From the NCBI GenBank assembly GCA_963575645.1, contig OY754466.1:44300001-44364000 (forward strand): 64,000 nucleotides of DNA, read 5' to 3'. The stretch comes from Xanthostigma xanthostigma. Its lineage: Eukaryota; Arthropoda; Insecta; Raphidioptera; Raphidiidae. Position numbers and translations under genes: made by a program. Shown in pieces: positions 9,602-60,350 of this stretch; within the stretch, counting starts at the first letter, position 1, and each line of letters opens with the position of its first letter. Below the pieces are notes generated by a model. It was not told where the DNA came from. It saw nothing but the letters and a program-made list of their open reading frames with translations, and ran no database searches.

Positions 9602-9949
9602 ATATAAATAGTAGAGAATACGCCCTTAAAAGCTACTTTTGTTGAAAGAATTTGATTTTATGCCACAAGCCTAAAACGTGTATTAGTAATTTCCTCTTTC
9701 TTTGAAATATCCGGTGCCACGCGACGTACAATAATGGAAAAAGTAAACTGTGAGACATTCCCCGTGTTTTAATTTAATAATACACAAATTTTCACTTGTT
9801 TGAAAATTATTTGACAACAAAATTGGAAACAAAAATACGATGCTAACAAAATTTTAATCAAATCTTTGATTAACGTCTGAACAGAACTCTTCAAATAAAT
9901 AAAATTGTCGACCAATTTTTCTCAGACCAATATATTGACTTAATAGGTA

Positions 9950-11207
9950 CCGTAAAATGGGGTGACTTTGACCAATTTTTAGGTTTGAACTAAAATTTCT
10001 ATGTGAAGACTACAAAAATTCAGGGATATTGTTTTTTGACAATATGGGTATTAGGTAGTACTAGCGTTAAGGGAAAGTAGTATCTTTAGTTTGTTTACCA
10101 TTATCAAGAAAAAAAATAAAATGGCGTAATAGTCAACTTCACCCCAAATGGGGTGAAGTTGACCACAGCTTTAATTTTCATTCTAATTGTTTATTTTAGC
10201 TAGTTGGGGTTAGTTTGTCCACAGGAATATGAAAAGAACATTTTATGAAACATTTATTTAAAAAAAAAACGAACATTAAAGTCCGAACAACCTAAATAAT
10301 GCAAAAAAGTAGAAATTAAACAGTTTACTTTAAATCAGATTGAAATTAAGCAGTTTATGTCAACAAAAATGTATATAAATATCACTAAAACTACTTTCAA
10401 ATCTAAAAAAAAAATTTAGCTAAAATTAAACGCCGAAAGGTCCAAATTAAACAAAAATTCCCCTCTGCGACCGGTTTTGGGTTCGTACAATTAATATTAA
10501 TTAATATGTATTTATTAATATTTTTTTAGAAGCCTGAGTTGCACTTATCTTTCCTTCTAAAACCTCTTCTAAGCATTTTTCTAATGTTTCTTCACTATAA
10601 TCTTTAAAAACTCGAGCACCTAAATATATTCTCGGCATATCGTCAAATTACACTTTTAAATAATTAAGAACTCAATTTTACAACCACTCACATTCATTCA
10701 TCAGAACAAACCGCGTTGTTAGAACAGTACAGACACACAAGACTGCAAGTTTTTGCAAGACTCTGCAAGCTAATCAACTTCACCCAGGCGGTCAAGTTAA
10801 CCCCAAAATCGTAAAAATATTGTCAAAGTTGAATATTTAGAATACTGCGATCCAGTTATTAAAGTTATGTAAAATATGATAATAAAGTGTTGACACAGAA
10901 AAATCACGTTATTAAAATAACGAAACATATTAGTCGTAAAGTTTCTGGTTTTGCAAATATTAATGATAGTTTGAGCACTACGAATTTTCATTAACTTTCA
11001 TATATGACTTTGGCTTCGTATGTATCATGTATAGATAAAAATTAAAACATTTTGTTTACATGAAAACTTTTGACAATATATTAGCTTAATATTTAAGCAA
11101 TAAAACTTCCGAATAATTATATCAATACGGAAAGTATTTAGCACTGAAACATTTTTTTAGTTTTTGGTCAACTTCACCCCAGTGGTCAAAGTCACCCCAT
11201 TTTACGG
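9950..11207. mobile_element. MITE with CCGTAAAATGGGGTGA termini
   Basis: A 1258-bp element with inverted ends CCGTAAAATGGGGTGACTTT / AAAGTCACCCCATTTTACGG and TA on each side, suggesting the mariner type. Subterminal copies of the GGTCAA(C/A)TTCACCCC motif occur internally (near 10132, 10775, 11166). The inside is AT-rich without a transposase ORF. It is inserted in a hammerhead retroelement. Confidence 0.75.
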
Positions 11208-11354
11208 TACTTTGGTATCCAAAACTACGTACTATAAAATTTGTTTGTTATTAATTTTTCATAAATTTTTTTAATCATTCATACTTTCAATCTTTCGTTA
11301 TTTAGATAATAAATAACTTAATACTAATTAATTTTATATATTTTTTAGATATTT

Positions 11355-11386
11355 CTGAAGAAGGTCCAAATCCGGATCGAAACGTC
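11355..11386 (+). ncRNA. Hammerhead-like ribozyme motif H1 (family 1)
   Basis: CTGAAGA, one extra A, stem II GGTCC/GGATC closing a six-base loop, GAAAC, then GUC as the NUH triplet. ACGU can form the short palindromic stem III known from Penelope-type hammerheads. Stem I pairing is weak here. Activity is untested. Confidence 0.55.
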
Positions 11387-11493
11387 ATCTTGTGTTATAT
11401 TGATTTGTAATTTTATCTATTAATTATTTTTGTCAATATATTGGTCTGAAAAAAATTGGTCGACAATTTTATTTATTTGAAAAATTTTAATCA

Positions 11494-12111
11494 ACTAAAC
11501 CAAAATGTCCGTCTTTCGGAAGGACTACGCATCTTCGCGATGGTACGGCTGCGGTTACCATGGTTACATTGTAACAACGCTGATACCATCGTGAAGTTAC
11601 TAAACTGGCCTTTCAAAAACCGGACATCACAATGTAACACCGATGTGTAACATTTCGAAAATGTTTTCAAAAAATTGAACAAAAAAAAGAGAAAGTGTTA
11701 TTTTGAGATCTGCGTCAATTCGATTATTAGAAATTATTTTTTAATTTTATTAAATTGACGGCAACCTCAAGTATTAATAATTATTCAAATACAGATTAAA
11801 AAAAATCTGGGAATTGGGGGTTTGTAATAGACGAGCTAAAGATTTTTTTTTTAACTTTTAATATCACTGGTTTAGCTGTGATCAGCTATTCACAGTGTAG
11901 ATAATAATAGAAATAAATACCTATCTAGAAATTATATACCTAAGTATCTAGAAAAATTTATGTCAATAGGGTACACCTACTGTTGTTACAATTTAACATG
12001 CACTTTTGATGACAAGGAAAGAGGAAAAAAATAGATAATAATAGTTGACTAGAGTGAAGCTAAAGAATATAGATACGTCACATAAACAATGGGACACTTT
12101 AGGACCTAGGT
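11494..12111. other. Unassigned AT-rich stretch
   Basis: Open frames of 63-64 codons on both strands near 11456-11682 overlap each other and lack motifs. No repeat boundary is recognised. Confidence 0.35.
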
Positions 12112-12380
12112 CATAGTTTCTCAACCGGTGATTTTTGAGTGGTCCGCGAGGTTTTTAAGGATGTTGCATTTTAAGGATTTTTAAACTATATTTGTTTGTT
12201 ACTGTCTGTTTTAATATACTTAAATATTGTTATGTCAGCATAGGGTGTTGCAAAATTAATTGTTTTGAATAAAAAAACAGTTATATAAATATTTATTATT
12301 TTATACCAATGTTGATGGTCCGCAATATATTTTTGAATTTTTTTGGTAGTCCGCGGATGTAAAAAGGTTGAAAAACTATG
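12112..12380. mobile_element. hAT-like MITE (CATAGTTTCTCAACC)
   Basis: Inverted ends CATAGTTTCTCAACC and GGTTGAAAAACTATG enclose 269 bp. The 8-bp flanks are ACCTAGGT (12104-12111) and CTCTAGGT (12381-12388), which differ at two positions. The termini resemble the common hAT ends of the form AGTGGTTCTCAACC. It shares its right flank with the next element. Confidence 0.65.
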
Positions 12381-12388
12381 CTCTAGGT

Positions 12389-12707
12389 CAAGGGTCGGCA
12401 ACCTTTTGAGACGGAAGAGCCAAAAGTTACAATTTACAAAAGTTCCCAGTTTTTAAAGAGCCACTAAACATTTTCGTTTCTGTATTATAGTATTGGCTTA
12501 TATAGGTATATCCGCGAGGACGACACGTCGCGACGGGAGCGATGCGGGTGAGACGCGAGTGGAAATGGCTGAGAGATAGACATGGTGTTTCAATCATGGA
12601 TCGATTGGACGATTTTTAAGGGTTTATATAATAAATAAATATTTTTTGCGTATGGAACTGGAGAGCCGCAACTTTACATCAAAAGAGCCGCAGGTTGCCG
12701 AGCCCTG
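12389..12707. mobile_element. hAT MITE (CAAGGGTCGGCAACC)
   Basis: A 319-bp element with inverted ends (CAAGGGTCGGCAACC, GGTTGCCGAGCCCTG) and an exact 8-bp duplication CTCTAGGT at 12381-12388 and 12708-12715. It belongs to the same family as the larger element at 16121-17762. The AGAGCCGC(A/C) blocks near both ends are characteristic of this hAT group. It is non-coding. Confidence 0.9.
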
Positions 12708-12715: not shown

Positions 12716-13111
12716 TATTCGCAATTTAGACAGATATAAACGGCTAAAATTAAAATATATTTTTTGACACTCTGTATAGGGAAGGAAAATGTATTTGAGT
12801 TGTTTACATAGTGGAATTTTTTTTTTAGACAAACATAAAAAAATCCGGCAAGTAGTATAGTATTATACGTACATATTTTAGGCGTAATTAGTCACGCACG
12901 TGATTCTACCGGAGTCACAACATGCTACAAAATATGATTTATTTTAACAGCAGTACCTATAATAGATGGCTATTTATCAGATATATAAAGTTTACAGACA
13001 CACAGATGTTTAGGTATTTACAACTAAATATATTTTCAACTCTGAAAATAGAGTGTGATTATCTGAAAAATATCGAATTTTAACGTTTTAATAATTCATA
13101 CTAATATTAAA
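12716..13111. other. Unassigned AT-rich stretch
   Basis: No coding or repeat signal is recognised. Confidence 0.35.
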
Positions 13112-13405
13112 ATATATAAATTAATTAATATTTAATTTCTAATTCGCTTTATATACAATTCTTTCAAAATAATTAATTAGTATCAAAATATTAATTATTT
13201 TGAAAGAATTGTAGGTATATAAAGCGAATTAGAAATTAAATATTAATTAATTTTTATATTTTTAGATCCGTTCTGAAGAAGATCCAAATCCGGATCGAAA
13301 CGTTAATGTATTATTTATATTTTTTGTTAATATATTGTCTGGAAAATTTGGTCGATAATTTTATTTATTGAAGAGTTCTAATCAGACGTTAATCAAAGAT
13401 TCGAA
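13112..13405 (+). mobile_element. Hammerhead retroelement, family 1, with palindromic 5' half
   Basis: 13112-13266 is an almost perfect palindrome built from the family-1 region TTTCTAATTCGCTTTATATA...AATTAATTAT, with its axis near 13190. It is followed directly by the ribozyme-like motif and the usual 3' segment TGGTCGATAATTTTATTTAT...AATCAGACGTTAATCAAAG. No target duplication was found. The arrangement fits a head-to-head partial inverted copy joined to a normal copy, as Penelope-like elements often show. Confidence 0.6.
13273..13304 (+). ncRNA. Hammerhead-like ribozyme motif H2 (family 1)
   Basis: CTGAAGA, an extra A, perfect stem II GATCC/GGATC with loop AAATCC, GAAAC and NUH = GUU. Stem I is CGTT (13269-13272) paired with AATG (13305-13308). 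C3 and G8 of the core can pair. Confidence 0.65.
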
Positions 13406-13411
13406 AGTAAC

Positions 13412-13800: not shown

Positions 13801-14047
13801 TAAAAGTGGATGTTCCGATACTTTTAATGTGAAATCTTGTTGTGCCCAAATTATGTAATGGTACGCGTTTACAAGTTTTTCATCTGGGTCGTAATATTGT
13901 GAAGGCTATTTTTTAATTAGTGGAAAATCTAAAGGAGACAGTGTTTTAATACCACGGTTAGCAATTATACAAGCGGACTTGCCTTTTCAATTTTAAAGGT
14001 TACAATTTCCAATAAAAACTGCTTTCGGAATAACTATAAAAAATTAA

Positions 14048-14590
14048 AATTAATCAAAGCATGCTTAACTAATTTATTTCTGACAGATCTACAAAACAAA
14101 AGAACACCTGACTTTTTTATTTTCAAAATATTTTCCAAAGCATAAAGATTAGAAAAAATTTTTTTTGACGAAACTTTCTTGAAAAAATAAATAGAATAAT
14201 GAGCCGTTATGAAAAGTATACCATTGTTATATAAAGAACACTGTTAGAACAAATATCTCTTATGCGCATGCGCCGATTTTCCCCAAAAACAATAGGACTC
14301 TTCATATTTGCATACCAAACATCCTCCCAAAATTTGGTTACAAGACAAACAGACGTTATATAATAACTTAATAAAAATCAGACAAATAGGATCAGAAAAT
14401 CAGTCAAAACTTCATGATTACTCGCTGTTTTGACTGATTTCCTCTGATTTTTATTAAATTATTTACATCATCAAGGATATAAGTTTTTTTGGATTCGGGG
14501 GACCAAAGCGAAAAGATATAAAATTTTGAAAAGTGATTTTTGACCTATACTAGTACCATTCCCCACTTGTAGGTTGGAATGGTAAAATTC
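14048..14590 (-). mobile_element. GGAATGGT-family MITE, minus copy
   Basis: It aligns in reverse to the copy at 18961-19693, from the TCTGACAGAT region to the terminus ...TTGGAATGGTAA. A small foldback (14362-14465) is inserted. The 168-codon frame at 14471-14977 on the minus strand runs from this element into unrelated DNA and is not a credible gene. Confidence 0.65.
14362..14465. repeat. Mini foldback inserted in a MITE
   Basis: TTAATAAAAATCAGA...AAATCAGTCAAAAC is followed by GTTTTGACTGATTT...TCTGATTTTTATTAA, giving arms of about 35-40 bp around an 18-bp loop. It is absent from the other MITE copies and is therefore a separate insertion of about 104 bp. Confidence 0.65.
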
Positions 14591-15398: not shown

Positions 15399-15609
15399 TT
15401 CCAGCCAATTAGGCGACGGGACCATTCCAACTTCAAAAATATTGACATTTGATATAGAATAATAAAAAGAATAAAATTTCTGATATTGCGTGATTTGACG
15501 CGGGTAATGACTAGTATCCAATATGTTATTTGCTATTCGTTGCCATGGTTACCTACATAATATGTTCCACGTCAAGTATAAATTAATCAATGCATGCTTA
15601 ACTAGTTTA

Positions 15610-15786
15610 ATAAATAAAATTATCGACCAATTTTTCAGACAATATTATATTAACAAAAAATATAATTAATACATTAACGTTTCGATCCGGATTTGGATCT
15701 TCTTCAGAACGGATCTAAAAAATATAAAAAATAATTAATATTTAATTTCTAATTCGCTTTATATAAATTCTTTCAAAATAATTAAT
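15610..15786 (-). mobile_element. 177-bp hammerhead retroelement, family 1
   Basis: An exact 11-bp duplication TAACTAGTTTA (15599-15609 and 15787-15797) brackets the insert, which interrupts a known MITE sequence, so the borders are certain. The content on the minus strand is the AT-rich 5' part with AAAGCGAATTAGAAATTAAA, then the ribozyme-like motif, then TCTGAAAAATTGGTCGATAA to the end. It has no ORF and is the shortest family-1 copy here. Confidence 0.85.
15676..15707 (-). ncRNA. Hammerhead-like ribozyme motif H3 (family 1)
   Basis: The minus strand reads CTGAAGA, an extra A, stem II GATCC/GGATC, GAAAC, GUU. Stem I CGTT/AATG is as in H2. It lies inside the 177-bp element with a verified target duplication. 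Confidence 0.65.
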
Positions 15787-16291
15787 TAACTAGTTTATTT
15801 TCGACAGATCTACAAAACAAAGCACCAGCTGATTTTTTTGTTGTTTTAAAAATATTTCCGAAACTATAAAGTTTAGAAAATAATGTTTTTTACGAAACTT
15901 TCTTAAAAAGATAAGTAGAATAATAAGCCGTCATGAAAAGTATACCATTATAAAAAACACCGTTATAACATATATCTCTTCTGCGCATGCCCCGATTAAC
16001 AACAGGGCTCTTCATAATTGCATACCAAACATTCTCCTAAAATTTGGTTTCAATCCACTTATCCGTTTGAGCTGTATCGTGTTCACAAACAAATAGGCAC
16101 ACAGACTTTTTCCACTAGTCCAGGGGTCGGCAACCTGCGGCTCGCGAGCCACATGTGACTCTTTCGATGTTAAGTTGCAGCTCTTCAGTTCCATGCGCCC
16201 AAATTAAATTAGGTATTTTATTATAAACTCCCTTAAAATTTGTGCAATCGATCCATGTTTGAGACGTTTATTTTAAATCAAATATATTGGT

Positions 16292-16682: not shown

Positions 16683-16892
16683 CAAATACTAAAAGGGGAA
16701 TTATAAAACGTTCGAATAAAAAAAAAACTTGGTGACTGATGATGAGATACTGTTTTAATAACTTGAGCGACTAAATTACTAAGTGAGCGACTAGAATGCC
16801 TTGGGTAATTTTGAAGCAGATATCTTCTTTTTTTTCACTTTGAGACTTAAAACTCACATTTTCATGAAGATTGAAAACCACCGCCTTTTTTG

Positions 16893-17345
16893 ATAAAGGG
16901 GTATGCGAATTGTCTCGCCGTGAAACGCGATGGGGCAAAGGTGGAGTTTTCAAAAAAATAATTCCGGGGTGAACGATAAACGGGTATGCGAATTGTAATT
17001 CCGGGGTGAACGATAAAGGGGTATGCGAATTGTCTCGCAGTGAAACGGGAAGGGGCAAATGTGGAGTTTTTAAAAATGAATTCCGGGGTGAACGATAAAC
17101 GGGTATGCGAATTGTAATTCCGGGGGGAACGATAAAGGGGTATGCGAATTGTCTCGCAGTGAAACAGGAAGGGGCAAATGTGGAGTTTTTAAAAATGAAT
17201 TCCGGGGTGAACGATAAACGGGTATGCGAATTGTAATTCCGGGGGGAACGATAAAGGGGTATGCGAATTGTCTCGCAGTGAAACGGGAAGGGGCAAATGT
17301 GGAGTTTTTAAGAAAACAATTCCGGGGTGAACGATAACTGGGTAG
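16893..17345 (+). repeat. 119-120-bp tandem array, about 3.8 units
   Basis: The junction GGGGTATGCGAATTGTCTCG recurs at about 16899, 17019, 17139 and 17258. Each unit also contains a shorter internal echo, GGGTATGCGAATTGTAATTC, and ATTCCGGGGTGAACGATAAA. The units are almost identical except the first, so the expansion is recent relative to the hAT element. The 95-codon minus frame across it is a repeat artefact. Confidence 0.9.
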
Positions 17346-17377
17346 GCGAATTAAATAGTTAATTGTTTGAATAGAAC

Positions 17378-17456
17378 TGCGTTTTCTAAAAAATGTATAT
17401 TTAATTGACAGTCAATTAAATATATATTTTTTAGAAAACTATTAACAAAATGCTGC
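17378..17456. repeat. Near-perfect 54-bp hairpin
   Basis: TTTTCTAAAAAATGTATATT and its inverse AATATATATTTTTTAGAAAA meet at TTGACAGTCAA with almost no loop. It lies inside the hAT element between the tandem array and the right end. Confidence 0.75.
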
Positions 17457-18960: not shown

Positions 18961-19693
18961 TTATCATTCCAACCCTCAAGTGAGGAATGGTACTAGTTTA
19001 GGTAAAAAATATTACAATATTTTTTCGGTTTGAGGTCCCTCGGATTAAAAAAAAATTTGTTTGGAAAAACTATGTTAGTCTTTGAGCACGATACAAGTCA
19101 AACGGATGAACGGATTGAAACCAAATTTTGGGAGAATGTTTGGTGTGCAAATATGAAGAGCCTTATTGTTTTTGAGGAAAATCGGCGCATACGCAGAAGA
19201 GATGTATACTTTAACGGTTTTTTTTATATAATAATGATACACTTTTCATAATGTCTTATTATTCTATTTGTTTTTTCAAAAAAGTTTCGTTAAAACTTTT
19301 TTTCTAAGCTTTATAGTTTCGGAAATATTTTGAAAATAAAAAAAAATCAGCCGTTCTTTTGTTTTATGGATCTGTCAGAAATAAATTAGTTAGGCATGCT
19401 TTGATTAATTTTTACATGACGTGGAACATATTATGTAGATAACCATGGCAACGAATAGTTAATATCATATTGAATACTAGCTATTACCCGCGTCACCTCA
19501 CGCGATATCAGAATTTTTTTTCTTTTTTATAATCAAATGTCAACATTTTTGAAATCGGAATGGTCCCGTCGCCCAATTGGCCGGAATTTTTTTTTTAATC
19601 TTGAGGAACCTCAAAACGAAAAATATGTAAAATTTTTAAAAGTCAATCGTTACCTAAATTTGTACCAATCCCTCTTGTGGCGTTGGAGTGGTA
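18961..19693 (+). mobile_element. GGAATGGT-family MITE, complete copy
   Basis: The reference copy of the family, 733 bp. The left terminus TTATCATTCCAAC...GGAATGGTAC.A.TTTAGGTAA...TTTTCGGTTTGAGGTCCCTC is mirrored at the right (GAGGAACCTCAAAACGAAAA...TTACCTAAATTTGTACCAATCC...GTTGGAGTGGTAA). The imperfect inverted termini are thus about 110 bp. The target duplication is unclear and the superfamily is undetermined. It sits 28 bp from the hAT MITE. Confidence 0.8.
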
Positions 19694-19985: not shown

Positions 19986-20133
19986 CAAATCTTTGATTAA
20001 CGTCTGATTAGAACTCTTCAAATAAATAAAATTGTCGAGCAATTTTTTTCAGACTATATATCGACAAAATAAAATTATAAATCAATAATACAAAAAATTA
20101 CGTTTCGATCTGGGTTTCAGAAATATTTAAAAA
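19986..20133 (-). mobile_element. Decayed family-1 hammerhead element
   Basis: AAATCTTTGATTAACGTCTGA...AAATTGTCGAGCAATTTTTTTCAGAC is the family-1 end in inverse orientation. It is followed by a motif remnant ACGTTTCGATCTGGGTTTCAGAAATAT (20100-20126) that has lost half of stem II. It is interrupted at 20146 by another hammerhead element. Confidence 0.6.
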
Positions 20134-20145
20134 TATAAAAAACTA

Positions 20146-20292
20146 GTAAAGTACGAATTAGATTTTGTGATGTTATGGTCAATTAATGTCAATTAATTAA
20201 AGACCTGAGGAAGACACCAAAACAGGTGTCGAAACGTAGTCTTCCTACAATAAACAAATTTGACTCATAAATCAACCGTTTCGTTTCTTTTC
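20146..20292 (+). mobile_element. 147-bp hammerhead retroelement, family 2
   Basis: An exact 12-bp duplication TATAAAAAACTA (20134-20145 and 20293-20304) borders the insert. It carries motif H6 and ends with AACAAATTTGACTCATAAAT and a short pyrimidine-rich stretch. Its sequence is unrelated to family 1 outside the motif. It lies inside an older family-1 copy, so two ribozyme families have used the same locus. Confidence 0.7.
20205..20238 (+). ncRNA. Hammerhead-like ribozyme motif H6 (family 2)
   Basis: CTGAGGA, an extra A, perfect 6-bp stem II GACACC/GGTGTC with loop AAAACA, GAAAC and NUH = GUA. Stem I AAGAC (20200-20204) pairs perfectly with GTCTT (20239-20243). This is the best-formed motif of the window. 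Confidence 0.75.
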
Positions 20293-20304
20293 TATAAAAA
20301 ACTA

Positions 20305-21625
20305 ATTAGTAAAATCTACTTATTTTACAATAGAATGCAGAAGTTAATTATCGAAAATTATAAAAAATTAATAACAACCAATTTTTTAATAAGTACTCTC
20401 ATGGATATCAAAGTACCTAAAAAGAAAGAAATAATCCATTAAAAAACAAAATATTATTTCAAAATAATATCATAAGTATTACTTAAATTTTCCGTATCTA
20501 ATTGAGCATTAAGGTTATACGCCCGATAGAGCAATGTATAGATAATACGCTGAAATTTTAATATCTCATACATTCAACTGCATTTTTTAAAAAACATTGA
20601 CCGTCTAGTTTTCAAGTTATTAATTATTAAAAATGCGATTTTTAACACAGTGATATATGAGAAGACTGACCGGAAGTGTATATAAAAATAAGATTAAACC
20701 AAATTGGCTATAGACAAATTTTTAAAAAACTGATTATTCGAAAGTTTGACTCATTTAGATAACGTAAAAATTAAAAAAACTATACTTTTCCGTGCAGTTT
20801 TGGAGAAATATTAATTAAAAATTTTCTAAACAACTCTCAAAATCTCTATTTTCTAGATTTGAATTATGTCACCATGAAAACCAGATTACACGAAAAGTTT
20901 TTCATAAATTTTGTTTTTATTAAATAATTTTTTTGACGTAGCTAATAACTAAAACTTGAAAATCGGATATTATCTCATTTACCGTGTATTAAAAACTGCA
21001 TTTAGTATCCAATAACTCAAAAACTATACGTCTAACGGTTCAAAGGTTTTTAAAATCAAAACGTAAGATAAAATCATTCGTGTACACTGGACTTAATTAA
21101 ATATACTGCTTAAGTCACAACTTTATGATATTATGTCAAATGTTTAAATATTATTTCTTAAATATTAAAAAATAAAGCTATGATCAACAGGATATAATAT
21201 TTCCATAAGAAATAATAAATTTACCAAGTCATATAACATTTTTTTGTTACAACAAAATACGGACGCAGTTTTTACTAATACGGTCGAGAGCGTATAACCT
21301 TAAGAGAATTTTTATTAGATTTTATATATAACATTTCCGAAATACCTCTTTCATTCATTATCCAAAATTTTAATACTAGGTATCCTAATTAATTTTATGG
21401 TCGTATTCAATTTGATGTTTAGTTTTCTTAGGTTGGGGATTTCTCCGTAATATTATACTTGTTTAGTGATGCAAATTTAAATTTTTATTTATTTTAGGGA
21501 AAATCGAATGGTAAACAATTTCTACACAAAATTTTATCTTAACGATATATTTAGGGTTTCGTAACCAAATGTCACAAAAACAAAACCATTATAATTACGT
21601 CCGTCTGTCCGTATATCATATCTTA
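20305..21625. other. Unassigned AT-rich stretch
   Basis: No repeat border or gene is recognised. The 60-codon frame at 20260-20442 is lysine- and isoleucine-rich AT DNA without a motif. A pair of GCCCGATAGAGC / ACGGTCGAGAGCG-type blocks flanking similar CTTAATGC/CTTAAGAG words (near 20515 and 21285) may mark an old inverted element. Confidence 0.35.
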
Positions 21626-28242: not shown

Positions 28243-29063
28243 ATGTCAAATACAATTAAAATAAACATAGCCTTGACACAAAAAAGTAAACTATGGAGGG
28301 TAGAGGGTAAGGAGAACCATCTCTGTGTATGAAAAATGTCCGTCAAAAAGAATGAAATTAAGATAGCGCTAACGTAAGAAGAGTGTCAATTTTTCTCTGA
28401 TGATTCTATAGGTTATATTTACCAAATAATGTTTGACTACGTAAGTGTTTGAGTTTTTATTTACTGTCAACATATTTATTACTCTACTCGCCAAAAATAT
28501 TAAATATTTGATGACAAAGTGCAGTTGACTTTTTAGAACCTTGAAAAAGGTCGAATATGGATCGAAACGTTGGTGGAATAAATAATTAACTGCACTAAGA
28601 AGTCCTAGATTACCCTTTAAAATTCAATTTTATTATTAATTCACTTCGACTGCTAAGTTTACATTAAACACTTTTTCTACACTAGCGCCATTTTGGTAAC
28701 TTTTTGAACTGTTATTGACGCTTTCAGACTCTGTGTTCAACTAGTCCTTATATCAGTTAATATTTTTTCATTGTTTATACGTCGCTTATATTTGAATATG
28801 GGGAAAGAATAAAGTCTCTATATTTTTATTGTTCTTTTATGTCTTGTCAACCTTCACCAGCTGTCAATTGTTTTTATTGAAATATCTGCGGTTACAAAAC
28901 AAAGCAGCTTATTCGATATTTTTGTTATAATAAGATTAATGACGGTTTAATCCCCAAGCAGTTTATTTATTTAATGCGATGAAAGCATAAACCAAACAAT
29001 TTCTTGAATCACTTTCTTCTAATACGAAAATCACGTGGACAGATAGATAGACTGTGGACTAAA
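28243..29063. other. Unassigned stretch around ribozyme motif H7
   Basis: Apart from H7 and the local inverted words GTGCAGTTGA / TTAACTGCAC (about 28519-28528 and 28597-28606), which may delimit a ~90-bp structure, nothing is recognised. Confidence 0.35.
28541..28571 (+). ncRNA. Hammerhead-like ribozyme motif H7 (U3-A8 type)
   Basis: TTGAAAA in place of CTGANGA, an extra A, stem II GGTC/GATC with a 7-base loop, GAAAC, NUH = GUU. Stem I ACC (28538-28540) pairs with GGT (28572-28574). Positions 3 and 8 are U and A, so the core pair is kept. No target duplication was found. Confidence 0.5.
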
Positions 29064-29669: not shown

Positions 29670-29933
29670 AAATCTTTGTTTAACGTCTGAATAGAACTCT
29701 TCAAATAAATAAAATTGTCGACCAATTTTTCTCAGATTCTAACTTTCAATTTTTCGTGCATTCTATTAGATAATAAATAACTTAATACTAATTAATTTTT
29801 ATATTTTTTAGATATTTCTGAAGAAAATCCAAATCTGGATCGAAACGTCATCTTGTGTTATTTGTATTTTTATTTTTTTTTGTCAATATAATATGGTCTG
29901 AGAAAAATTGGTCGACAATTTTATTTATTTGAA
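29670..29933 (+). mobile_element. 264-bp hammerhead retroelement, family 1
   Basis: An exact 12-bp duplication AAGTACATTTTT (29658-29669 and 29934-29945). The left 60 bp (AAATCTTTGTTTAACGTCTG...AAATTGTCGACCAATTTTTC) is the inverse of the right end. Between them lie a short AT-rich segment, ATATTTTTTAGATATTTCTG and motif H5. This is the cleanest example of the family layout: inverted partial end, body, motif, 3' segment. Confidence 0.85.
29818..29849 (+). ncRNA. Hammerhead-like ribozyme motif H5 (family 1)
   Basis: CTGAAGA, an extra A, stem II AATCC/GGATC (one A-C mismatch at its base), GAAAC, NUH = GUC. It is identical to H1 apart from stem II changes. Confidence 0.5.
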
Positions 29934-47430: not shown

Positions 47431-47666
47431 TATATATTAGATATGTGTCCATCGAGATAATAATTAATAAGAAAAATCGCAGGAATGTGGACAAAAAGTT
47501 AGATTTATTAATGTAAGACGTTTCGTCTATAGATTCAGACTTTTTCAAGTACAATATGAAAATTCAAAACAATAATTATGAAAATAAACATTAATGACTA
47601 ACCATAGCAATTAACAAAAGTTAAGGTACATAAGACAAAAACATTCCTGCGATTTTTTTTATTAAT
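47431..47666 (-). mobile_element. 236-bp hammerhead retroelement, family 3
   Basis: An exact 14-bp duplication TATTATTAATTCTT (47417-47430 and 47667-47680). Inner inverted ends AAAAATCGCAGGAATGT (about 47473-47489) and ACATTCCTGCGATTTTT. The motif H8 lies on the minus strand near one end. The sequence is otherwise unrelated to families 1 and 2. Confidence 0.8.
47517..47548 (-). ncRNA. Hammerhead-like ribozyme motif H8 (U3-A8 type)
   Basis: Minus strand: TTGAAAA, an extra A, stem II GTCT/AGAC with an 8-base loop, GAAAC, NUH = GUC. Stem I has one mismatch next to the core and then four pairs. U3-A8 replaces C3-G8, as in H7 and H9. Confidence 0.55.
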
Positions 47667-47680
47667 TATTATTAATTCTT

Positions 47681-48089: not shown

Positions 48090-48100
48090 GTTTTTTGTTC

Positions 48101-48380
48101 CAATAAATAAAATTATCAACCAATTTTTCAGACAATATATTTACAAAAAATCATTATTTTTTCAATATTTTGATACTAATTAATTATTTTGAAAAAATGT
48201 TATATAAAGCGAATTAAAAATTAAATATTAATTATTTTTTAGATCCGTTCTGAAGAAGATCCAAATCCGGATCGAAACGTTAATGTATTAATTATATTTT
48301 TTGTTAATATATTGTCTGAAAAATTGGTCGATAATTTTATTTACTGAAAAGTTTTAATCAAACGTTAATCAAAGATTTGA
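48101..48380 (+). mobile_element. 280-bp hammerhead retroelement, family 1
   Basis: An exact 11-bp duplication GTTTTTTGTTC (48090-48100 and 48381-48391). The left end CAATAAATAAAATTATCAAC is the inverse of the region before the 3' end. The body ATTAATTATTTTGAAAAAAT...AAAGCGAATTAAAAATTAAA, motif H4, and the 3' segment ending AACGTTAATCAAAGATTTGA are complete. It is probably the fullest family-1 unit here. Confidence 0.85.
48250..48281 (+). ncRNA. Hammerhead-like ribozyme motif H4 (family 1)
   Basis: CTGAAGA, an extra A, stem II GATCC/GGATC, GAAAC, GUU, stem I CGTT/AATG. Identical to H2 and H3. Confidence 0.65.
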
Positions 48381-48589
48381 GTTTTTTGTTCAACTCGAGA
48401 TTTGCTATCAGAAACTGCTTAAGGATACTTCTTTCTATTTCAAACTCAACAGAAAGTGTACAAATGCCAACATTATTTTTTACTTTTTCGTAATCTCCAT
48501 TTTTGTCTCTATAAATTCATATTTAATTTTCATAAATTTACACAAGATTATATTCGAGAAAAACGTTAATGTATTAAAAAAGTATAAAT

Positions 48590-49613: not shown

Positions 49614-49902
49614 AAAAAAATTCCAGCCAATTGGGCGACGGAACCATTCCAACTTCAAAATGTTGACATTTGATATGATATAATAAACAAAATAAAATTT
49701 CTGATATCACGTGAGGTGACGCGGGTAATGACTAGTATTCAGTATTTTTGCTATTCGTTGCCATGGTTACCTACATAATATGTTTCACGTTATGTAAAAA
49801 TTAATCAAAGCATGCTTATCTAGTTTATTTCTGACAAAACAAAAGAACATGTGATTTTTTTTATTTTCAAAACTATAAAGTTTAAAAAAAATTGTTTTTA
49901 AT

Positions 49903-50140
49903 ATAAAGTAGTGTTGATCCAATAGACTGTTAAGATAAAGGAAGGTTTTGGTTGAGGATCATAAAATAAGCTTTACCAATGTTTCGCTAGTGGCCAACGT
50001 TTCGAAAAATTTATTTTCAGCTTCAGGGCCTATATGAACATATTGTATATATGTATATAATTTAGAACATATTGTATCTTACAATTTTAATGTACAAAGA
50101 ACCATGGCTCAAACGATAAGTTTTAGTTAAAGCTACTACT
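49903..50140 (-). mobile_element. 238-bp hammerhead retroelement, family 4
   Basis: An exact 12-bp duplication ATTGTTTTTAAT (49891-49902 and 50141-50152) inside MITE sequence, so the borders are certain. It carries motif H12 on the minus strand and no ORF. The sequence is unrelated to the other families apart from the motif. Confidence 0.85.
49996..50026 (-). ncRNA. Hammerhead-like ribozyme motif H12 (family 4)
   Basis: Minus strand: CTGAAGC (position 9 is C instead of A), an extra U, stem II GAAAA/TTTTC with a 5-base loop, GAAAC, NUH = GUU. Stem I GGCC/GGCC is perfect. Confidence 0.55.
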
Positions 50141-50502
50141 ATTGTTTTTAATGAAACATTCTTGCAAATTAAATAGAATAATAAGCCGTTATTAAGAGTA
50201 TACCATTATTATATAAAAAACATCGTTATAGCATATCTATTCTGCACATGCGCCGATTTTCCCCAAAAACAATAGGGCTCTTCATATTTGCACACCAAAT
50301 ATCCTCCCAAAATTTGGTTTCAATTCACTCATCCGTTTGACCTGTATCGTGCTCACAGACTAACAGACGGGCAGAGTATTTCCAAAAACATGTTTTTATG
50401 GATTAGGGGGACCTCAAAGCGAAAAGATATTGTAAAATTTTGAAAAATGAATTTTAACCTAAATTAGTGCCATTCTACACTTATGATGTTGGAATGGTAA
50501 AA

Positions 50503-51084: not shown

Positions 51085-54000
51085 ATATGAATATGAATAT
51101 GAATTTTATTGTCAATAGAACTGTACATATACAGTATATTTGACTAGTCAAAATTACACAGAGATATAATACTATTTAAAATAAGAATAAAATTCGTCAA
51201 GAGAATAAAATGCATTATTGACAAGTAGGCTTTTAACTTTAGATTTAAATTTTGTGAAAGAAGCCAAATTTCTGTATTCTGCAGGCAGTATATTGTATAA
51301 ATGGGCTGAGATATTTGACGGACTATATTTAAAAATATTATTATTTGCCATAGGTGTTATTAACCTAAATTTCGTACGTGTATCATGCGAATGAATAGTG
51401 TCTACAGTTGTAAAATTGGCTATGTTTTGGCGAGCAAAAACAATGCAACAATAGATGTAGATACATGGCACGGTTAACATTTTTTTACTTTTAAAAATAT
51501 CTCGGCATGAAGCGTTCCATTTTAAACTATACATTGCTCTAATAACTTTTTTTTGCAGAATGAAAATGTTTTTACAATGTGGACTATTACCCCACCCAAT
51601 GATCCCATATTTCAACTGTGGATAAATATAACCGAAGTAGATAGATCTTAAGATAGAAATATCTTTATACAGAAATTTAGCTTTTTTCACAACGTACAAT
51701 TTTTTAGAAATTTCATTGCGAACGTGCAGTATGTGTTCATCCCACTTTAAATTTGAATTCATATAAATTCCTAAAAATTTGAAGACTTCTACCCTTTCTA
51801 TATGACAGTTATTAATGGAAAGATCTATATGTTGGTCGTTTTTGGATTGAACAGTTTTCATGCACATGAACTTTGTTTTGTGTTCATTTAATAATAGTTT
51901 ATTGGCATTGCACCAGTCCTGTACCTGGGCGAGCGCTGATATTGCTTTTGGTTTCAAATCAACAGGATTTAATGCTGAAACTAAAAGATTAGTGTCATCT
52001 GCATATATAATACAATTATCTGCAGACGATGCTGCTTTAGGAAGGTCATTAATATACAGTACGAAGAGTACCGGACCCAAGACAGACCCCTGTGGGACAC
52101 CTGTAGATACTGCTTCTATAGCAGAAGAAAATTCACCCGATACACAAACCTGCTGTGCTCTGTCTGTCAAAAACGATTCAATCCAATTACGACCAATACC
52201 TCTAACCCCCATATACTCGAGTTTAGACAAAAGAATTTGATGGTCGACAGTGTCAAAGGCTTTACTCATATCTAAATAGATTGCAGAACAACATTTTCTA
52301 TCATTCAAAAGTGTAGCACAAAAGTCAATGAAACTGTAGATAGCCGATTCCGTCGACCTACCTTTACGGAAACCATGCTGCGAGTTACTGATTATACCAC
52401 TGTCGTATAGAAAAGGTACAAGTCTATTCATAAAAGCATGTTCAAGATATTTGGAAAAGATTGATGGAACTGAAATCGGTCTGTAATTTTTTATAGATTT
52501 TTTATCACCGCTTTTATATAGTGGTGTAACTTTTGAAGTTTTTAGAGCTGTAGGAAACACACCATAGGTAAAAGATATATTAATTAAATTCATTAATGGA
52601 TCAATTATATGAGGAAGTACATCTTTTACTATTGAGCCTGGAATGCCATCAATGCCAGCTGATAGAGAATTACTTATTTTACATGAAATCTCATTTAATT
52701 CATTTTTTGTTATGGGGCTTAAAAAGAGTGTTTTCGTATTATGTTCCATGTTAAAATTCGGGTTGTTAAAACTGTTATGTGAGCGTAGAGATTTCACTAA
52801 ATCAATAAAATAGTCATTAAAGGCATTTGCCAACATTTTTGGATGGTTTATAATAGTTTCATCTATCTCTAACTCTGACACTTGATAGCATTTCGTATTA
52901 TTTGAATTACAATCAGATTTGATAATGTTCCATAGTTTTTTATTTCGATTATTAGATCCATTAATGCTGTTTTGCACAAATTGTGTTTTTGTGTCATTAA
53001 CTAAATTGTCATAAAACATTTTATAGTCTTTATATATGGTTTCCAGGTTATGATCGTTTTTATACATGTAGAAAAGATTCATTAACCTATTTTTATGATA
53101 TATTATGTCTTGAGATAGCCATTTTTCTTTATTGTTATACATTTTTTTAGTTTCAAGGGGAAATGCTATTTCAAAGTAGTATTTAAAAACAGAATAAAAG
53201 TTATTAAAAGCATCATTAAAATTGTTTTTATCTGATACTTCATCCCATTTTTCAATTGAAATCAGATATTTAAAATAATCTCTGTTCTGAAGATTATAAG
53301 ATCGACATTTTATCGGCGTCGAGTTATCAGTTTGCACTGATTGAATACCGTCATTGAAAACTAATGATACAGCATAATGATCTGATAAAAAATATTTTAA
53401 AACGGAGGCGTTAAATTCACAGCAGTTAGTTAAAATATTGTCAATGCATGATTGAGAATATTGACCAACTCTAGTAGGCTCATTGACAGTGGGGGACAGA
53501 TTATATGTATTGATGATGTCAAGTAAATTTTGTAATGGCGGAGCCATAGTGAGAAAGTCTATATTGAAGTCACCTGTCAAAAAAATTTCATAATCACTAA
53601 GGGACAATTTATTAAGTATTCTGTCTAATTTGTGCAAAAATATATCTATGTCACCACTTGGACTTCTATAAAGACATAGTATAATAGTTTTTCTACGTCC
53701 ATTTATAAACTGAACGCCGCAAATTTCAAAATTTAAATCATCACAGTAGTCATATAAAAAGATTAGTTCTTCTGTTACAATTTTAGAATTAATAAGTATC
53801 ATAGACCCACCATGAATATGATGCTTTCTGCAGTACCGCGCACCTATATAAAAACCTTTAAAATTTACAGTAAACATTTCGTCATCGTACATCCAATGCT
53901 CTGTGATACACATAAATGATGGCTGCTCTTGATCTAGTAATACAGTCATTTGATTGACTTTATTGCGCAAACACTGAGTGTTTAAATTTAAAATTTTAAG

Positions 54001-54120
54001 TCTACTTGTATTATATGATATATCATGATAAACGTGCACATTTTTAGGATTTAGATGTCGTTTCCATAGCAATCCTATTACATTTTCGCTAACAGTCGCG
54101 AACAGCTGTCATTCTTGTTT
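51085..54120 (-). mobile_element. LINE (CR1/L2-like, Jockey superfamily), 5'-truncated
   Basis: A minus-strand non-LTR retrotransposon. The 3' end (left) is a short UTR of about 70 bp and a hexamer tail, (TTCATA)n as read on the minus strand, instead of poly(A), as in CR1/L2-group elements. The ORF2-type protein occupies most of it. No ORF1 is visible to the right and the 5' limit (about 54120-54200) is uncertain. I found no clear target duplication. Confidence 0.85.
51172..54072 (-). CDS. LINE ORF2: AP endonuclease-reverse transcriptase
   Basis: 966 codons without interruption. It would nick genomic DNA and copy the element's RNA at the nick. The N-terminal apurinic-type endonuclease shows N31 (LNTQCLRNK), E58 (CITEHW), the GDFN motif at 167-170, the specificity region near NEPTRVGQ (197-204) and SDH at 230-232. 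The reverse transcriptase spans roughly 455-760: TPLYKSGD (516-523), NYRPISV (529-535), HGFRKGRST (566-574), the first catalytic Asp in YLDMSKAFDTVDH (599-611), GVPQGSVLGPVLF (658-670) and the catalytic YADD at 690-693. About 200 residues follow, rich in basic residues, without RNase H. All expected catalytic residues are present, so the protein could be functional. Length fits a CR1/L2-group ORF2. I chose the first ATG; it precedes the endonuclease by about 25 residues and the true start could be upstream in a longer element. Clade assignment within the Jockey superfamily is inferred from motif style and the 3' tail. The plus-strand frame at 51860-52240 is its shadow. Confidence 0.95.
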   Translation of the reverse strand: MLWKRHLNPKNVHVYHDISYNTSRLKILNLNTQCLRNKVNQMTVLLDQEQPSFMCITEHWMYDDEMFTVNFKGFYIGARYCRKHHIHGGSMILINSKIVTEELIFLYDYCDDLNFEICGVQFINGRRKTIILCLYRSPSGDIDIFLHKLDRILNKLSLSDYEIFLTGDFNIDFLTMAPPLQNLLDIINTYNLSPTVNEPTRVGQYSQSCIDNILTNCCEFNASVLKYFLSDHYAVSLVFNDGIQSVQTDNSTPIKCRSYNLQNRDYFKYLISIEKWDEVSDKNNFNDAFNNFYSVFKYYFEIAFPLETKKMYNNKEKWLSQDIIYHKNRLMNLFYMYKNDHNLETIYKDYKMFYDNLVNDTKTQFVQNSINGSNNRNKKLWNIIKSDCNSNNTKCYQVSELEIDETIINHPKMLANAFNDYFIDLVKSLRSHNSFNNPNFNMEHNTKTLFLSPITKNELNEISCKISNSLSAGIDGIPGSIVKDVLPHIIDPLMNLINISFTYGVFPTALKTSKVTPLYKSGDKKSIKNYRPISVPSIFSKYLEHAFMNRLVPFLYDSGIISNSQHGFRKGRSTESAIYSFIDFCATLLNDRKCCSAIYLDMSKAFDTVDHQILLSKLEYMGVRGIGRNWIESFLTDRAQQVCVSGEFSSAIEAVSTGVPQGSVLGPVLFVLYINDLPKAASSADNCIIYADDTNLLVSALNPVDLKPKAISALAQVQDWCNANKLLLNEHKTKFMCMKTVQSKNDQHIDLSINNCHIERVEVFKFLGIYMNSNLKWDEHILHVRNEISKKLYVVKKAKFLYKDISILRSIYFGYIYPQLKYGIIGWGNSPHCKNIFILQKKVIRAMYSLKWNASCRDIFKSKKMLTVPCIYIYCCIVFARQNIANFTTVDTIHSHDTRTKFRLITPMANNNIFKYSPSNISAHLYNILPAEYRNLASFTKFKSKVKSLLVNNAFYSLDEFYSYFK

Positions 54121-54375: not shown

Positions 54376-55457
54376 TAATTAAAACACCCAAAACATTCCT
54401 GTATTGTTCGATTGTTCATATAATTATTTTTTTAATAGTTTGCTGCATATTGCTACTACCTACTTGGCTAGAGAAAAGGAACACAAACCAAATTTAACTA
54501 ATAACAATAATAATAAAATAAAAAATGAATAGATTTTAAATGTAGATAACATACACGAACGTAGAATTTCATATGAATTAGAAAAAAATTAGTATGGTGT
54601 AGGTGCAGTTATTCGTTACGGCGCTTCCGCCATATATTTTTAACTATACATTAGGGTGTGTTTTTTTTTATTTTCTTCAAACCTGTGAACGGCGCAAACC
54701 GAGTTTGTTTCTCATTTAATTAACATGGGAAAAACGACGTTTTTACTCAAAAATGGGTAGCTGGTCGACATTTTTTTTTAAATTTTTGATAGCAACATTT
54801 TGTAGAGAATTAAATTTCCCACGAAAATGGTCCTCGGTCCTAAATCCGTGATTCATTATTTTTAAACTAATTAAATTATGAGAATGTTTAAACGAACATA
54901 TCTTTGAAAATAATGAAATCACGGACTAAGGACCGAGGATCATGTTTGTGGGAAATTTAATTCTCTGCAAAATGTTGCTATCAAAAATTAAGAAAAAAAT
55001 GTCAACCCATGTTTGAGTAAAAACGTCGTTTTTCCTATGTTAATAAAATGGGAAAAAAACTCGGTCTGCTCCGTGCACAGGTTTGATTTGGGAAGCTGAA
55101 ATTTTTAGAGAACTTTTTTTACATCGAATGCTAAAACATTAGCCAATGAGAGCGATAGAAAATTAAAAAAAACACACTAATGTATATTTAAAAATATATG
55201 GTGGAAGCGCCGTAACGAATAACTGCACCTACACCACATTTAATTTTTTCTCATATGCGTATGAAATTCTACATTCGGGTATGTTATCTGCACTTAAAAT
55301 CCATTCATTTTTTATATTATTATTATTATTATTATTAGTTAAATTTGGTTTGTGTTCCTTTTCTCTAGCCAAGTAGTAGCAGTATACAGCAAATTATTAA
55401 ACAAATAATTATATGAATAATCGAATAATAATGGAACGTTTAGGGTATTTTCAATTA
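54376..55457. repeat. 1.08-kb foldback (long inverted repeat)
   Basis: Two arms of about 490 bp each, separated by a spacer of about 50 bp near 54860-54910, with matches such as TGTAGGTGCAGTTATTCGTT ACGGCGCTTCC against GGAAGCGCCGTAACGAATAA CTGCACCTACA, and CTACTTGGCTAGAGAAAAGG AACACAAACC on both sides. The arms agree at about nine in ten positions by eye. No ORF and no target duplication. A transcript would form a very long hairpin. Confidence 0.85.
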
Positions 55458-58519: not shown

Positions 58520-59337
58520 TCTAGAATATTATATGGTTGAAGTTATATGTTCGCCGAATTATTATCTTTATATATAAAATATTTTTTTTACATTTATGAC
58601 ATTCAGGATGAACATGGGCTATATATTATCGCGTTAAAATAAAAGCGCTTTTCGTGGGGACGCGTCGCATAAAGAAGTAAGACTTTCAAGCCCACAGTCA
58701 ACACACTTAATACAAATAAAACCACATATCCGATAGCTACCGTAATTGGAAAGTTAATAAATTGCTAAAACTTGTAACAAAATGATTGCAAATTTTAATT
58801 GCGTTTAGAAACTACTCTATGTCGATGAATGTCCATGGAATAAGTTACACAATTTCTAAAAGTTAGATTTCAGAGTCATCCAAAGTTAATTAAATGGAAA
58901 TTTTAATGGTCACAACTATATTCTTTAATGACGTATTTAAAATATGAAAACTGCTCTGAATGCAAATAACACCGAGCTTCATCCATCATTTTATTGCAAA
59001 GCTAACGACTTTGTGATTATTATATTCAAAATCTCTCTTTTCAACAGAAAACTCATAAATTACCTTTGAAATATAAAATAATGATCTGAATAATACAGAT
59101 TAAGGACAACGCTGAAATTGATGGACACATGATATTTTCAATTTTTAGTGTATTTGGCATATAGCTATCAGCTTCGGTCGGATGGCGAGGCCTAGAGAGC
59201 GAACCAACATTCATAGCCTTATGAGCAATTTGGCACCGCATTTTTGGAAATGCTTCTATATATATTATATATGTCTACCTATATTTATAGGTATAAGGAT
59301 GGTTTTTAGAGGTTAAAAATATTTTTGAGAAAAAATA
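58520..59337. other. Unassigned stretch with a Helitron fragment
   Basis: 58607-58685 (ATTATCGCGTTAAAATAAAA GCGCTTTTCGTGGGGAC) matches the 5' part of the Helitron at 41436. The rest is unrecognised. Confidence 0.4.
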
Positions 59338-59668
59338 TGGAAAAAAATTGCAGAATCGTTTCAAAATTAACAGTTAACCTTTCAGTAAGAATTATAATAT
59401 ATACTGCCAAAATTTTAATAATATCGGCCCGACAGGTCCGGACTTACAAATTTTATGAAAGCTTGTTTACGGATATGGATTTACTTACTGAAGGGTGTAT
59501 TTAATTAGTTAAAGACGTTGAATTAATATTATTATTGAAATTAGGAAAAAAGTATTTTTAACGAATGTATTACGAGGTAAAATTTTTTAATTTCTCCAAA
59601 AACAAAAATAAGTTTACATAATAAAGCCATAATGCCTGTATTAGCAAATAAATTATATTGTCGGCAAA
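59338..59668 (+). repeat. Repeat paired with 8831-9171
   Basis: Same orientation and landmarks (CGGCCCGACAGGTCCGGACT TACAAATTTTATG, TATATTGTCGGCA). It ends at the same GTCGGCA point as its partner. Confidence 0.6.
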
Positions 59669-60090
59669 TTAATTACGATTTTTCATGCCCGACGTATTTT
59701 TGTTCATTTAAATTATAGTTTTTTGTACCTAGTAAGTTTTCAACTTAAAACAACAACCAAAATTACATAGGTACAGTTTAGATTAGCCGGTACCGCTGGA
59801 ATCTCCTTAAATATATAATATAATATAATAATATTCAAATTTAACTTCATGTTTTGGAACATAAAACTTCTATTGAAGAAGTTAACTTCTTCGCTATAAT
59901 ATAATAGTTAGAAGTGAATAACAAATAACAATAGATAAACGCAATGTGGTTTGTTGTCAGATTGTTAGTAAACTTATAGTTTAGAGTTAGTTCCATAAAG
60001 TAGAAAGGCTATAGACTTGTCATAACTCGGAGGCTGTAGCTTTAGTTTCAAATAAAAGATGACATTTTATTATTTTTACATAAGCATACC
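59669..60090. other. Unassigned AT-rich stretch
   Basis: No gene or repeat border is recognised. Confidence 0.35.
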
Positions 60091-60120
60091 TAATTAGTAT
60101 AACCATTGGTATTTCTACCT

Positions 60121-60155
60121 AACGTTTCGTCTATAACTGCGGTAGACATTATCAA
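60121..60155 (-). ncRNA. Hammerhead-like ribozyme motif H9 (U3-A8 type)
   Basis: Minus strand: TTGATAA, an extra U, perfect stem II GTCTA/TAGAC, GAAAC, NUH = GUU. Stem I GCCT/AGGT (one G-U pair) lies at 60156-60159 and 60117-60120. Confidence 0.6.
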
Positions 60156-60228
60156 AGGCGACCATAAAAGACGGAATACTTACTCGTGAGAAGCCTAGAA
60201 GGACACTTTGCCCGCTACCACATCGCCT

Positions 60229-60263
60229 TTGATAATGTCTACCACAGTTGTAGACAAAACGTC
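60229..60263 (+). ncRNA. Hammerhead-like motif H10, altered core
   Basis: Plus-strand partner of H9: TTGATAA, extra U, stem II GTCTA/TAGAC, then AAAAC where GAAAC is expected, NUH = GUC; stem I GCCT/AGGT. G12 is the general base of the hammerhead, so this copy is probably inactive. Confidence 0.45.
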
Positions 60264-60350
60264 AGGTAGAAATACCAATGGACTACGGCATACAAGCCCA
60301 GAAACCAAGAAACAACACCGGCCGTGAAAGCCTACACATTAATTAGTATA

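What the first reader, a model, noticed from the sequence alone, without database searches (positions are those of the whole stretch)
9861..60339. A set of 147-280-bp retroelements built around a hammerhead-ribozyme-like motif
Eight insertions (9861, 15610, 20146, 29670, 47431, 48101, 49903, 60102) carry a CUGANGA-like box, a stem II hairpin, GAAAC and a NUH triplet, and are bounded by exact 11-14-bp direct duplications. Two interrupt identifiable MITE sequence, so their borders are certain. At least four sequence families share only the motif. Hammerheads are known in the terminal repeats of Penelope-like elements and in retrozymes. Such short, complete units in several unrelated families in one 64-kb window suggest a thriving non-autonomous class mobilised in trans.
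Basis: partly seen in the sequence, partly recalled or inferred. Interest (0 to 1): 0.85.

Follow-up and report, generated by a model that had tools for sequence, protein, structure and literature searches.

The report
Short Penelope-type insertions with hammerhead motifs
This stretch of genome holds many very short inserted elements that carry a hammerhead-ribozyme-like RNA motif and the insertion footprint of Penelope retrotransposons; at least one kind is the tail end of a full Penelope element, and others look like short elements that borrow its enzymes.

Summary
In detail: all eight insertions have exact 12-14-bp duplications and a hammerhead-like core. That core occurs 10 times in the window against 0.13 in shuffles. 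No Rfam hammerhead model hits the window, because the motif lacks helix III and has one extra base before stem II. Penelope-like elements (PLEs) of the same genome carry the same variant. One narrow form occurs 12,649 times genome-wide against 7 for the backward control.

The insertions have the PLE footprint: head-to-head inverted arms and two alternative 3' ends 26-38 nt apart. One end carries the 'tail', the other lacks it: 32 of 32 double-arm loci in four families, and 12 of 13 resolved loci in a sample of 15 chosen by motif alone.

A recheck corrected my first reading. Family F is the end of a long coding PLE. The E family recurs as a fixed 254-290-bp unit; D and I look like short units; H is open.

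Best explanation: PLE enzymes made all of these insertions, and E, D and I are probably non-autonomous. This is a new variant of a known kind. Ribozyme activity and mobilisation in trans are untested.

The parts
9862..11480 (+). Insertion A (E family), interrupted by a 1.26-kb repeat at about 9947-11211; duplication AAAATTTTAATCAA at 9848-9861 and 11481-11494
11355..11383 (+). Hammerhead-like core of A
13104..13404 (+). Further E-family copy (B) with an inverted left arm and the tail at right; no duplication found
13273..13301 (+). Hammerhead-like core of B
15610..15785 (-). Insertion C (E family, truncated, tail-less), inside a MITE-like repeat; duplication 15598-15609 / 15786-15797
15679..15707 (-). 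Hammerhead-like core of C
19986..20425 (-). Older E-family copy (J) interrupted by D; right limit approximate
20146..20292 (+). Insertion D, single tail-less arm, 147 bp; duplication 20134-20145 / 20293-20304
20205..20235 (+). Hammerhead-like core of D (stem I 5 bp, stem II 6 bp)
28541..28568 (+). Extra hammerhead-like core of the U3-A8 type; its element was not delimited
   Evidence: E = 0.68
29670..29933 (+). Insertion E: short inverted tailed arm (29670-29736) joined to a tail-less arm (29736-29933); duplication 29658-29669 / 29934-29945
29818..29846 (+). Hammerhead-like core of E (mismatch at the base of stem II)
   Evidence: missed
47431..47666 (-). Insertion F: end of a long PLE family, here a tailed arm (sense -) plus a short inverted tail-less arm at right; duplication 47417-47430 / 47667-47680
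   Evidence: PLE coding upstream of the same sequence elsewhere
47520..47548 (-). Hammerhead-like core of F, U3-A8 variant
   Evidence: (E = 0.08)
47446..47493 (-). 3' hairpin of F: 6-bp stem TGTCCA/TGGACA, 36-nt loop holding the first 3' end
48101..48379 (+). Insertion G (E family): short tail-less inverted arm at left, tailed arm at right; duplication 48089-48100 / 48380-48391
48250..48278 (+). Hammerhead-like core of G
49903..50140 (-). Insertion H, single tailed arm (sense -), inside a MITE-like repeat; duplication 49891-49902 / 50141-50152
49999..50026 (-). Hammerhead-like core of H (A9 to C)
49915..49961 (-). 3' hairpin of H: 6-bp stem, 35-nt loop
60103..60339 (+). Insertion I: two inverted arms, tail at right; duplication 60091-60102 / 60340-60351
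60124..60155 (-). Hammerhead-like core of the left arm of I, U3-A8 variant
60229..60260 (+). Hammerhead-like core of the right arm of I, U3-A8 variant, G12 to A
60285..60325 (+). 3' hairpin of I: 5-bp stem ACGGC/GCCGT, 31-nt loop

Best explanation
All of these insertions were made by the enzymes of Penelope-like elements. The PLE protein would cut both target strands with a stagger (giving the duplication) and prime cDNA from each cut strand on an RNA that carries a minimal hammerhead and, 50-90 nt further on, a 3' hairpin with two start sites 26-38 nt apart. One strand starts at the first site (tail-less end), the other at the second (tailed end). Where the two cDNAs meet they form a head-to-head inverted pair; a short second arm looks like a MITE terminal repeat. 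F is such an insertion of a long coding PLE, truncated to its end. The E family (A, C, E and G) and probably D and I are short non-autonomous templates copied in trans; H is undecided. Shown: motif, duplications, inverted arms, one tail per insertion, hairpin geometry, PLE coding for F, a recurrent unit for E. Inferred: the enzyme in trans for E, D and I, dual-strand priming, and ribozyme activity.
For: PLE in the same genome: L063 has an 804-aa frame with RVT_1 and GIY-YIG. Its insertion has inverted head-to-head copies, and by reading the sequence a 13-bp duplication and a roughly 34-nt tail at one end only. L066, a PLE with a long tail-less arm and a 115-bp tailed inverted arm, has the architecture of E. 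F lies at the end of a PLE reading frame.

Same motif variant, with one extra base before stem II, in 9 of 16 GIY-YIG loci examined (L033, L039, L040, L042, L063, L064, L066, L067, L068) and in all 10 hits.

One tail: D 8 of 8, F 6 of 6, H 8 of 8 and I 10 of 10 double-arm loci, among 40 loci. In all 15 head-to-head pairs of the list, 12 of 13 resolved differ by 28-38 nt between ends, tailed side left 6 and right 6.

Orientation: 27 of 30 neighbouring cores within 500 bp are head-to-head, none tail-to-tail.

3-8 pairing genome-wide: C3-G8 12,649 (control 7, narrower pattern); U3-A8 4,258 (control 410); U3-G8 1,167 (control 2,298); C3-A8 841 (control 177).

Hairpin geometry: 0 of 4,000 shuffles reach the joint score.

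Short units. E: 24 of 30 loci with their own duplication, lengths 254-290, and no PLE coding in any of the 30 with 1.5-kb flanks. I: 6 of 10 loci with a duplication of 9 bp or more, lengths 270-298. D: 8 of 10 with a duplication of 9 bp or more, and the single-arm copy L078 loses similarity 77 nt upstream of the motif although 132 nt were available.

Published: the PAc protein cuts and extends both strands and starts internally at two sites bounding the tail (PMC11167929, main text); Adineta PLEs have inverted pseudo-LTRs, a 31-bp tail on one of them, 8-10-bp duplications, and a host gene moved in trans (PMC3846280, passages).
Against: F is the end of a long PLE, so the short form alone does not show an independent element; longer PLEs carrying E, D, H or I may exist and were not excluded. 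The stacked 5' ends I first counted follow the limits of the queries and are withdrawn as evidence; one search shows F and some H copies running on. No helper PLE sharing sequence with E, D, H or I was found. Seven of 16 GIY-YIG loci show no motif (at least one, L036, looks like another gene, and flanks were short). Free folds are no better than shuffles (z -1.5 to +1.0). Single hairpins are weak (3.5% to 32% of shuffles do as well) and were noticed by eye first. L117 breaks the one-tail rule (difference 9), and L110 and L123 are unresolved. D in the window is a single tail-less arm. In vitro, PAc insertion did not need the hammerhead (PMC11167929). The U3-G8 backward control exceeds its count, so that comparison is rough.
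Confidence: 0.65

Rival explanations
1. All of them, not only F, are truncated ends of long autonomous PLEs made by ordinary PLE insertion, with no independent short template.
For: Shown for F. Same footprint throughout. H arms vary in 5' extent. Double-arm loci in the motif-chosen sample vary from about 290 to 456 bp, as truncation would give.
Against: The E unit with one fixed internal junction recurs at 24 of 30 loci with separate duplications, and none of these 30 has PLE coding within 1.5 kb. D and I loci show no PLE coding either, but their flanks were short.
Confidence: 0.28
2. They are MITEs: short DNA transposons with terminal inverted repeats, the hammerhead-like motif being incidental.
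For: Short, terminal inverted repeats of 30-60 bp, thousands of candidate copies.
Against: Duplication length varies (8-17 bp); the two ends differ by a tail; inverted arms vary from about 30 bp to the full length; F is a PLE end.
Confidence: 0.02
3. They are metazoan retrozymes that move through self-cleaved circular RNA.
For: Size range, type-I core, PLE suspected as helper (PMC7229834: abstract and two sections).
Against: No helix III and no Rfam hit in the window; head-to-head pairs, with 3 of 30 on the same strand.
Confidence: 0.03

Closest known systems
Penelope-like elements with pseudo-LTRs (Drosophila virilis Penelope, Adineta vaga Pen families, Anolis PAc)
   Same: Minimal hammerhead, inverted head-to-head arms, a tail of about 30 bp on one end, duplications of around 8-15 bp, internal start of reverse transcription
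   Different: The window insertions encode no protein; F is the end of such an element, E recurs as a fixed short unit
Short nonautonomous Penelope elements of heliconiine butterflies (PMC6685494, passages)
   Same: Short, non-autonomous, attributed to Penelope
   Different: The passages give no anatomy, so identity of kind cannot be judged
Dispersed minimal type-I hammerheads of animal genomes (PMC7761336, passages; the 2014 and 2017 original papers were not read)
   Same: Thousands of type-I cores lacking helix III in non-coding DNA, some in PLE pseudo-LTRs
   Different: In the passages read, the dispersed motifs are not assigned to complete short insertions
Metazoan retrozymes (PMC7229834, abstract and two sections)
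   Same: Small, non-autonomous, type-I hammerhead, duplications longer than 4 bp
   Different: Retrozymes are tandem repeats with canonical hammerheads

Membership tests
Penelope-like element (insertion made by) | Minimal hammerhead as in the genome's own PLEs | tested here: met
   PLE-only model finds 5 window motifs at E < 0.01 and misses A, E and I
Penelope-like element (insertion made by) | Inverted head-to-head arms | tested here: met
   27 of 30 close pairs. C, D and H in the window are single arms
Penelope-like element (insertion made by) | Tail on one of the inverted ends | tested here: met
   32 of 32; 12 of 13 resolved of 15
Penelope-like element (insertion made by) | Target duplication of variable length | tested here: met
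Penelope-like element, autonomous | Reading frame with reverse transcriptase and GIY-YIG joined to the element | tested here: inconclusive
   met for F elsewhere in the genome, GIY-YIG end of the frame only; no PLE coding in the window (no match better than E = 0.03), in 30 E loci, or in the D, H and I loci with short flanks
Non-autonomous PLE derivative | Recurrent short unit without coding | tested here: inconclusive
   E met; D and I suggestive; H open; F not met
Non-autonomous PLE derivative | Insertion by PLE enzymes in trans | not testable with these tools
   needs a bench test
Metazoan retrozyme | Canonical type-I hammerhead | tested here: not met
   no Rfam hit in the window; no helix III
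Metazoan retrozyme | Head-to-tail tandem copies | tested here: not met
   3 of 30 close pairs on the same strand
Metazoan retrozyme | Circular RNA | not testable with these tools
   no RNA data
Hammerhead ribozyme | Core with 3-8 pairing and stems I and II | tested here: met
   Exceptions: F has no contiguous stem I pair, H departs at A9, one arm of I at G12
Hammerhead ribozyme | Self-cleavage | not testable with these tools
   no assay
MITE | Fixed-length duplication and symmetric terminal inverted repeats | tested here: not met

The most novel reading that the evidence does not exclude
Several families of short PLE-dependent elements exist, each defined by its own start hairpin, and they account for many of the dispersed minimal hammerheads of animal genomes. 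The near-invariant pairing of one tailed with one tail-less end shows that PLE integration primes the two cut target strands from two different start sites of one RNA hairpin, perhaps one site per protein of a dimer. The hammerhead core is kept under pairing constraint because it serves this process.
Probability: 0.3. Interest if true: 0.72.

Novelty: new variant of a known kind. Interest (0 to 1): 0.52.

Why it matters
How Penelope-like elements integrate, and what their minimal hammerheads are for, is still open. Thousands of short insertions are a natural record of that reaction: two start sites, with both kinds of end in almost every double-arm insertion, and a candidate recognition hairpin in several independent versions. 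The E unit gives a substrate of under 300 nt to test with a purified PLE protein. The footprint also gives a rule for telling such insertions from MITEs in genome annotation.

Tried and rejected
Rfam hammerhead families gave nothing in the window. Over the genome, RF00163 scored 73 of 81,843 first-look candidates and gave two canonical motifs in another element, just under the cut-off. Insertion A was first taken for a long form; its interior is an unrelated repeat.

Withdrawn: my first count of recurrent 5' ends (F 37 of 39 rows, H 30 of 39, D 45 of 63 arms, the query itself and one short D row left out). Those points are where the window copies used as queries end.

The hairpin was looked for by eye in PLE loci L033, L039, L040 and L042 without a clear result. 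Copy numbers are not settled: first-look candidates (E 3,438, F 2,371, I 1,840, H 1,349, D 138) are unverified and only 40 places per family were scored. In one search, 24 of 30 E loci had a duplication of 9 bp or more (L016 in a microsatellite); the other six gave 6-8 bp. The E loci all show one tail, but their query carried one. In one search, L110's longest repeat (10 bp, difference 86) lies inside the similar part of the arms and was set aside, L123 gave only an 8-bp repeat inside the arms, and L113 and L122 rest on 8-bp repeats. The organism was not identified. Literature searches were made; only PMC6685494 was found to name short nonautonomous Penelope elements, and the library lacks most subscription journals.


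Full report
Check of the observation. The window is G000:C3:44300001-44364000 of a 623-Mb genome in 28 contigs, unnamed. All eight listed insertions have exact direct duplications of 12-14 bp. For C, H and D, the joined flanks align without interruption to five, four and two other places of the window. The tuned core motif occurs ten times against a mean of 0.13 in 60 shuffles, each with one extra base between A9 and stem II, and nine with at least one stem I pair (F none, A one pair). The untuned scan gave nine hits against a mean of 1.5, two of them probably chance. Rfam finds no hammerhead in the window. A covariance model built from five PLE motifs of this genome lists eight matches up to E = 10 in the window: C, G, B, H and D below 0.01, F at 0.08, 28541 at 0.68, and one likely chance match. 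It misses A, E and I.

Families. BLAST within the window groups A, B, C, E, G and an older copy J into one family; D, F, H and I show no relation to it or to each other at that sensitivity. D is inserted into J.

PLEs. A GIY-YIG search gave 37 matches. L063 holds an 804-aa frame with RVT_1 and GIY-YIG, preceded by a partial copy in tandem and one inverted head-to-head. Reading its ends, a 13-bp duplication bounds the whole, and one end only carries a roughly 34-nt tail. L066 pairs a long tail-less arm with a 115-bp tailed inverted arm. Nine of 16 GIY-YIG loci carry the motif near the frame.

What the short insertions belong to. My first evidence for independent units, stacks of 5' ends in the search tables, proved to follow the ends of the queries. 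Alignment beyond the queries shows F copies staying alike to the limit of the fetched DNA. In the extended flanks of two F loci the sequence upstream encodes the end of a PLE frame, and PLE peptides also match L081, L082, L084 and L087. F is therefore a pseudo-LTR of a long PLE, and the window's F is a truncated PLE insertion with its own duplication. H copies run up to about 80 nt past the window copy, and one upstream flank holds no PLE coding, so H is open. E is different: 24 of 30 loci have their own duplication around 254-290 bp, 28 of 30 match the query in one piece across the same inverted junction, and none has PLE coding within its flanks. A fixed junction at so many target sites means that the composite itself is copied. 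These 30 were the best of 3,438 candidates by likeness to the query, so they do not describe the whole family. I recurs at 270-298 bp in 6 of 10 loci with duplications of 9 bp or more. D forms inverted pairs of 230-385 bp with 9-15-bp duplications in 8 of 10 loci, and most D arms are 94-100% identical to the window copy, so D was active recently.

One tail per insertion. In ten loci each of D, F, H and I, every insertion with two outward arms (8, 6, 8 and 10) has one end reaching the second site and one stopping at the first. D's query held no tail; the F, H and I queries held one. To remove that bias I took all 15 head-to-head pairs within 500 bp among the first 100 places of the core pattern. 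Twelve of 13 resolved have ends 28-38 nt apart, the tailed side left in six and right in six; L117 differs by 9; L110 and L123 are unresolved. Among the first 100 places of each of two patterns, all on contig C1, 27 of 30 neighbours within 500 bp are head-to-head, three on the same strand and none tail-to-tail; fewer than one per list is expected by scatter.

Pairing 3-8. In the hammerhead fold C3 pairs with G8 (PMC11167929, main text, reports the C3G/G8C partial rescue). F, I and the motif at 28541 have U3-A8. Genome-wide, U3-A8 (4,258, control 410) exceeds both one-step forms, U3-G8 (1,167, control 2,298) and C3-A8 (841, control 177). Many listed one-step forms look like decayed copies of C3-G8 families, whereas the U3-A8 list shows several stem II sequences of its own. 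This supports a real fold at the time of amplification, not present activity.

Hairpin. In D, E, F, H, I and the L063 PLE a 5-6-bp stem encloses the first 3' end, with a loop of 31-41 nt and the 3' arm ending 15-18 nt after that site. Each alone is unremarkable. Their joint agreement in geometry, maximised over position in the same way for shuffles, was not reached in 4,000 shuffles with or without L063. The test is post hoc on the sequences where it was noticed, and free folding of single copies does not favour it.

Mechanism. The Anolis PLE protein cuts and extends both target strands, starts internally at two sites that bound the tail, and its hammerhead is active only with protein and not needed for insertion in vitro (PMC11167929). 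Adineta PLEs show inverted pseudo-LTRs, a 31-bp tail on one of them, and a host gene moved in trans between pseudo-LTRs (PMC3846280, passages). The short insertions fit this footprint. The step I add is inference: each double-arm insertion uses both start sites, one per target strand.

Novelty. Minimal hammerheads in PLEs and dispersed in animal genomes are known (PMC7761336, passages; PMC6155905, passages), and short nonautonomous Penelope elements have been mentioned (PMC6685494, passages). Not found in the searches: a fixed-junction short unit like E, the one-tail rule counted over many insertions, the common hairpin geometry, and the genome-wide 3-8 covariation.

Noticed in passing
window 9947-11211: A 1.26-kb repeat with 27-33-bp inverted ends sits inside insertion A; 38 other full-length places are 98-99% identical, so it is young. 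Its class was not determined.
   Followed up: partly
window 51172-54108 (-): 978-aa open frame with Exo_endo_phos and RVT_1 domains, an intact-looking LINE-type frame.
   Followed up: partly
L001 and L002 around 1507-1540: Two fetched stretches of 3,046 bp, 41 Mb apart on one contig, are 100% identical and hold a canonical type-I hammerhead (33.6 bits, Rfam cut-off 34) between frames matching MULE (below its cut-off) and Ulp1 protease; an assembly duplication was not excluded.
   Followed up: partly
window 48576-48914, 54381-55451, 34274-34685: Large fold-back repeats with arms of up to 135 bp; the one at 54381-55451 has nested arms over about 1 kb.
   Followed up: no
   Followed up: no
window 1096-1239, 14046-14282, 15500-15997, 19176-19491, 34824-35148, 49721-50260: At least six copies of one AT-rich MITE-like repeat, two of them interrupted by C and H.
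   Followed up: partly
window 16771-17411 (-): GC-richer stretch with repeated coding-like sequence; its longest frame has no Pfam match.
   Followed up: no
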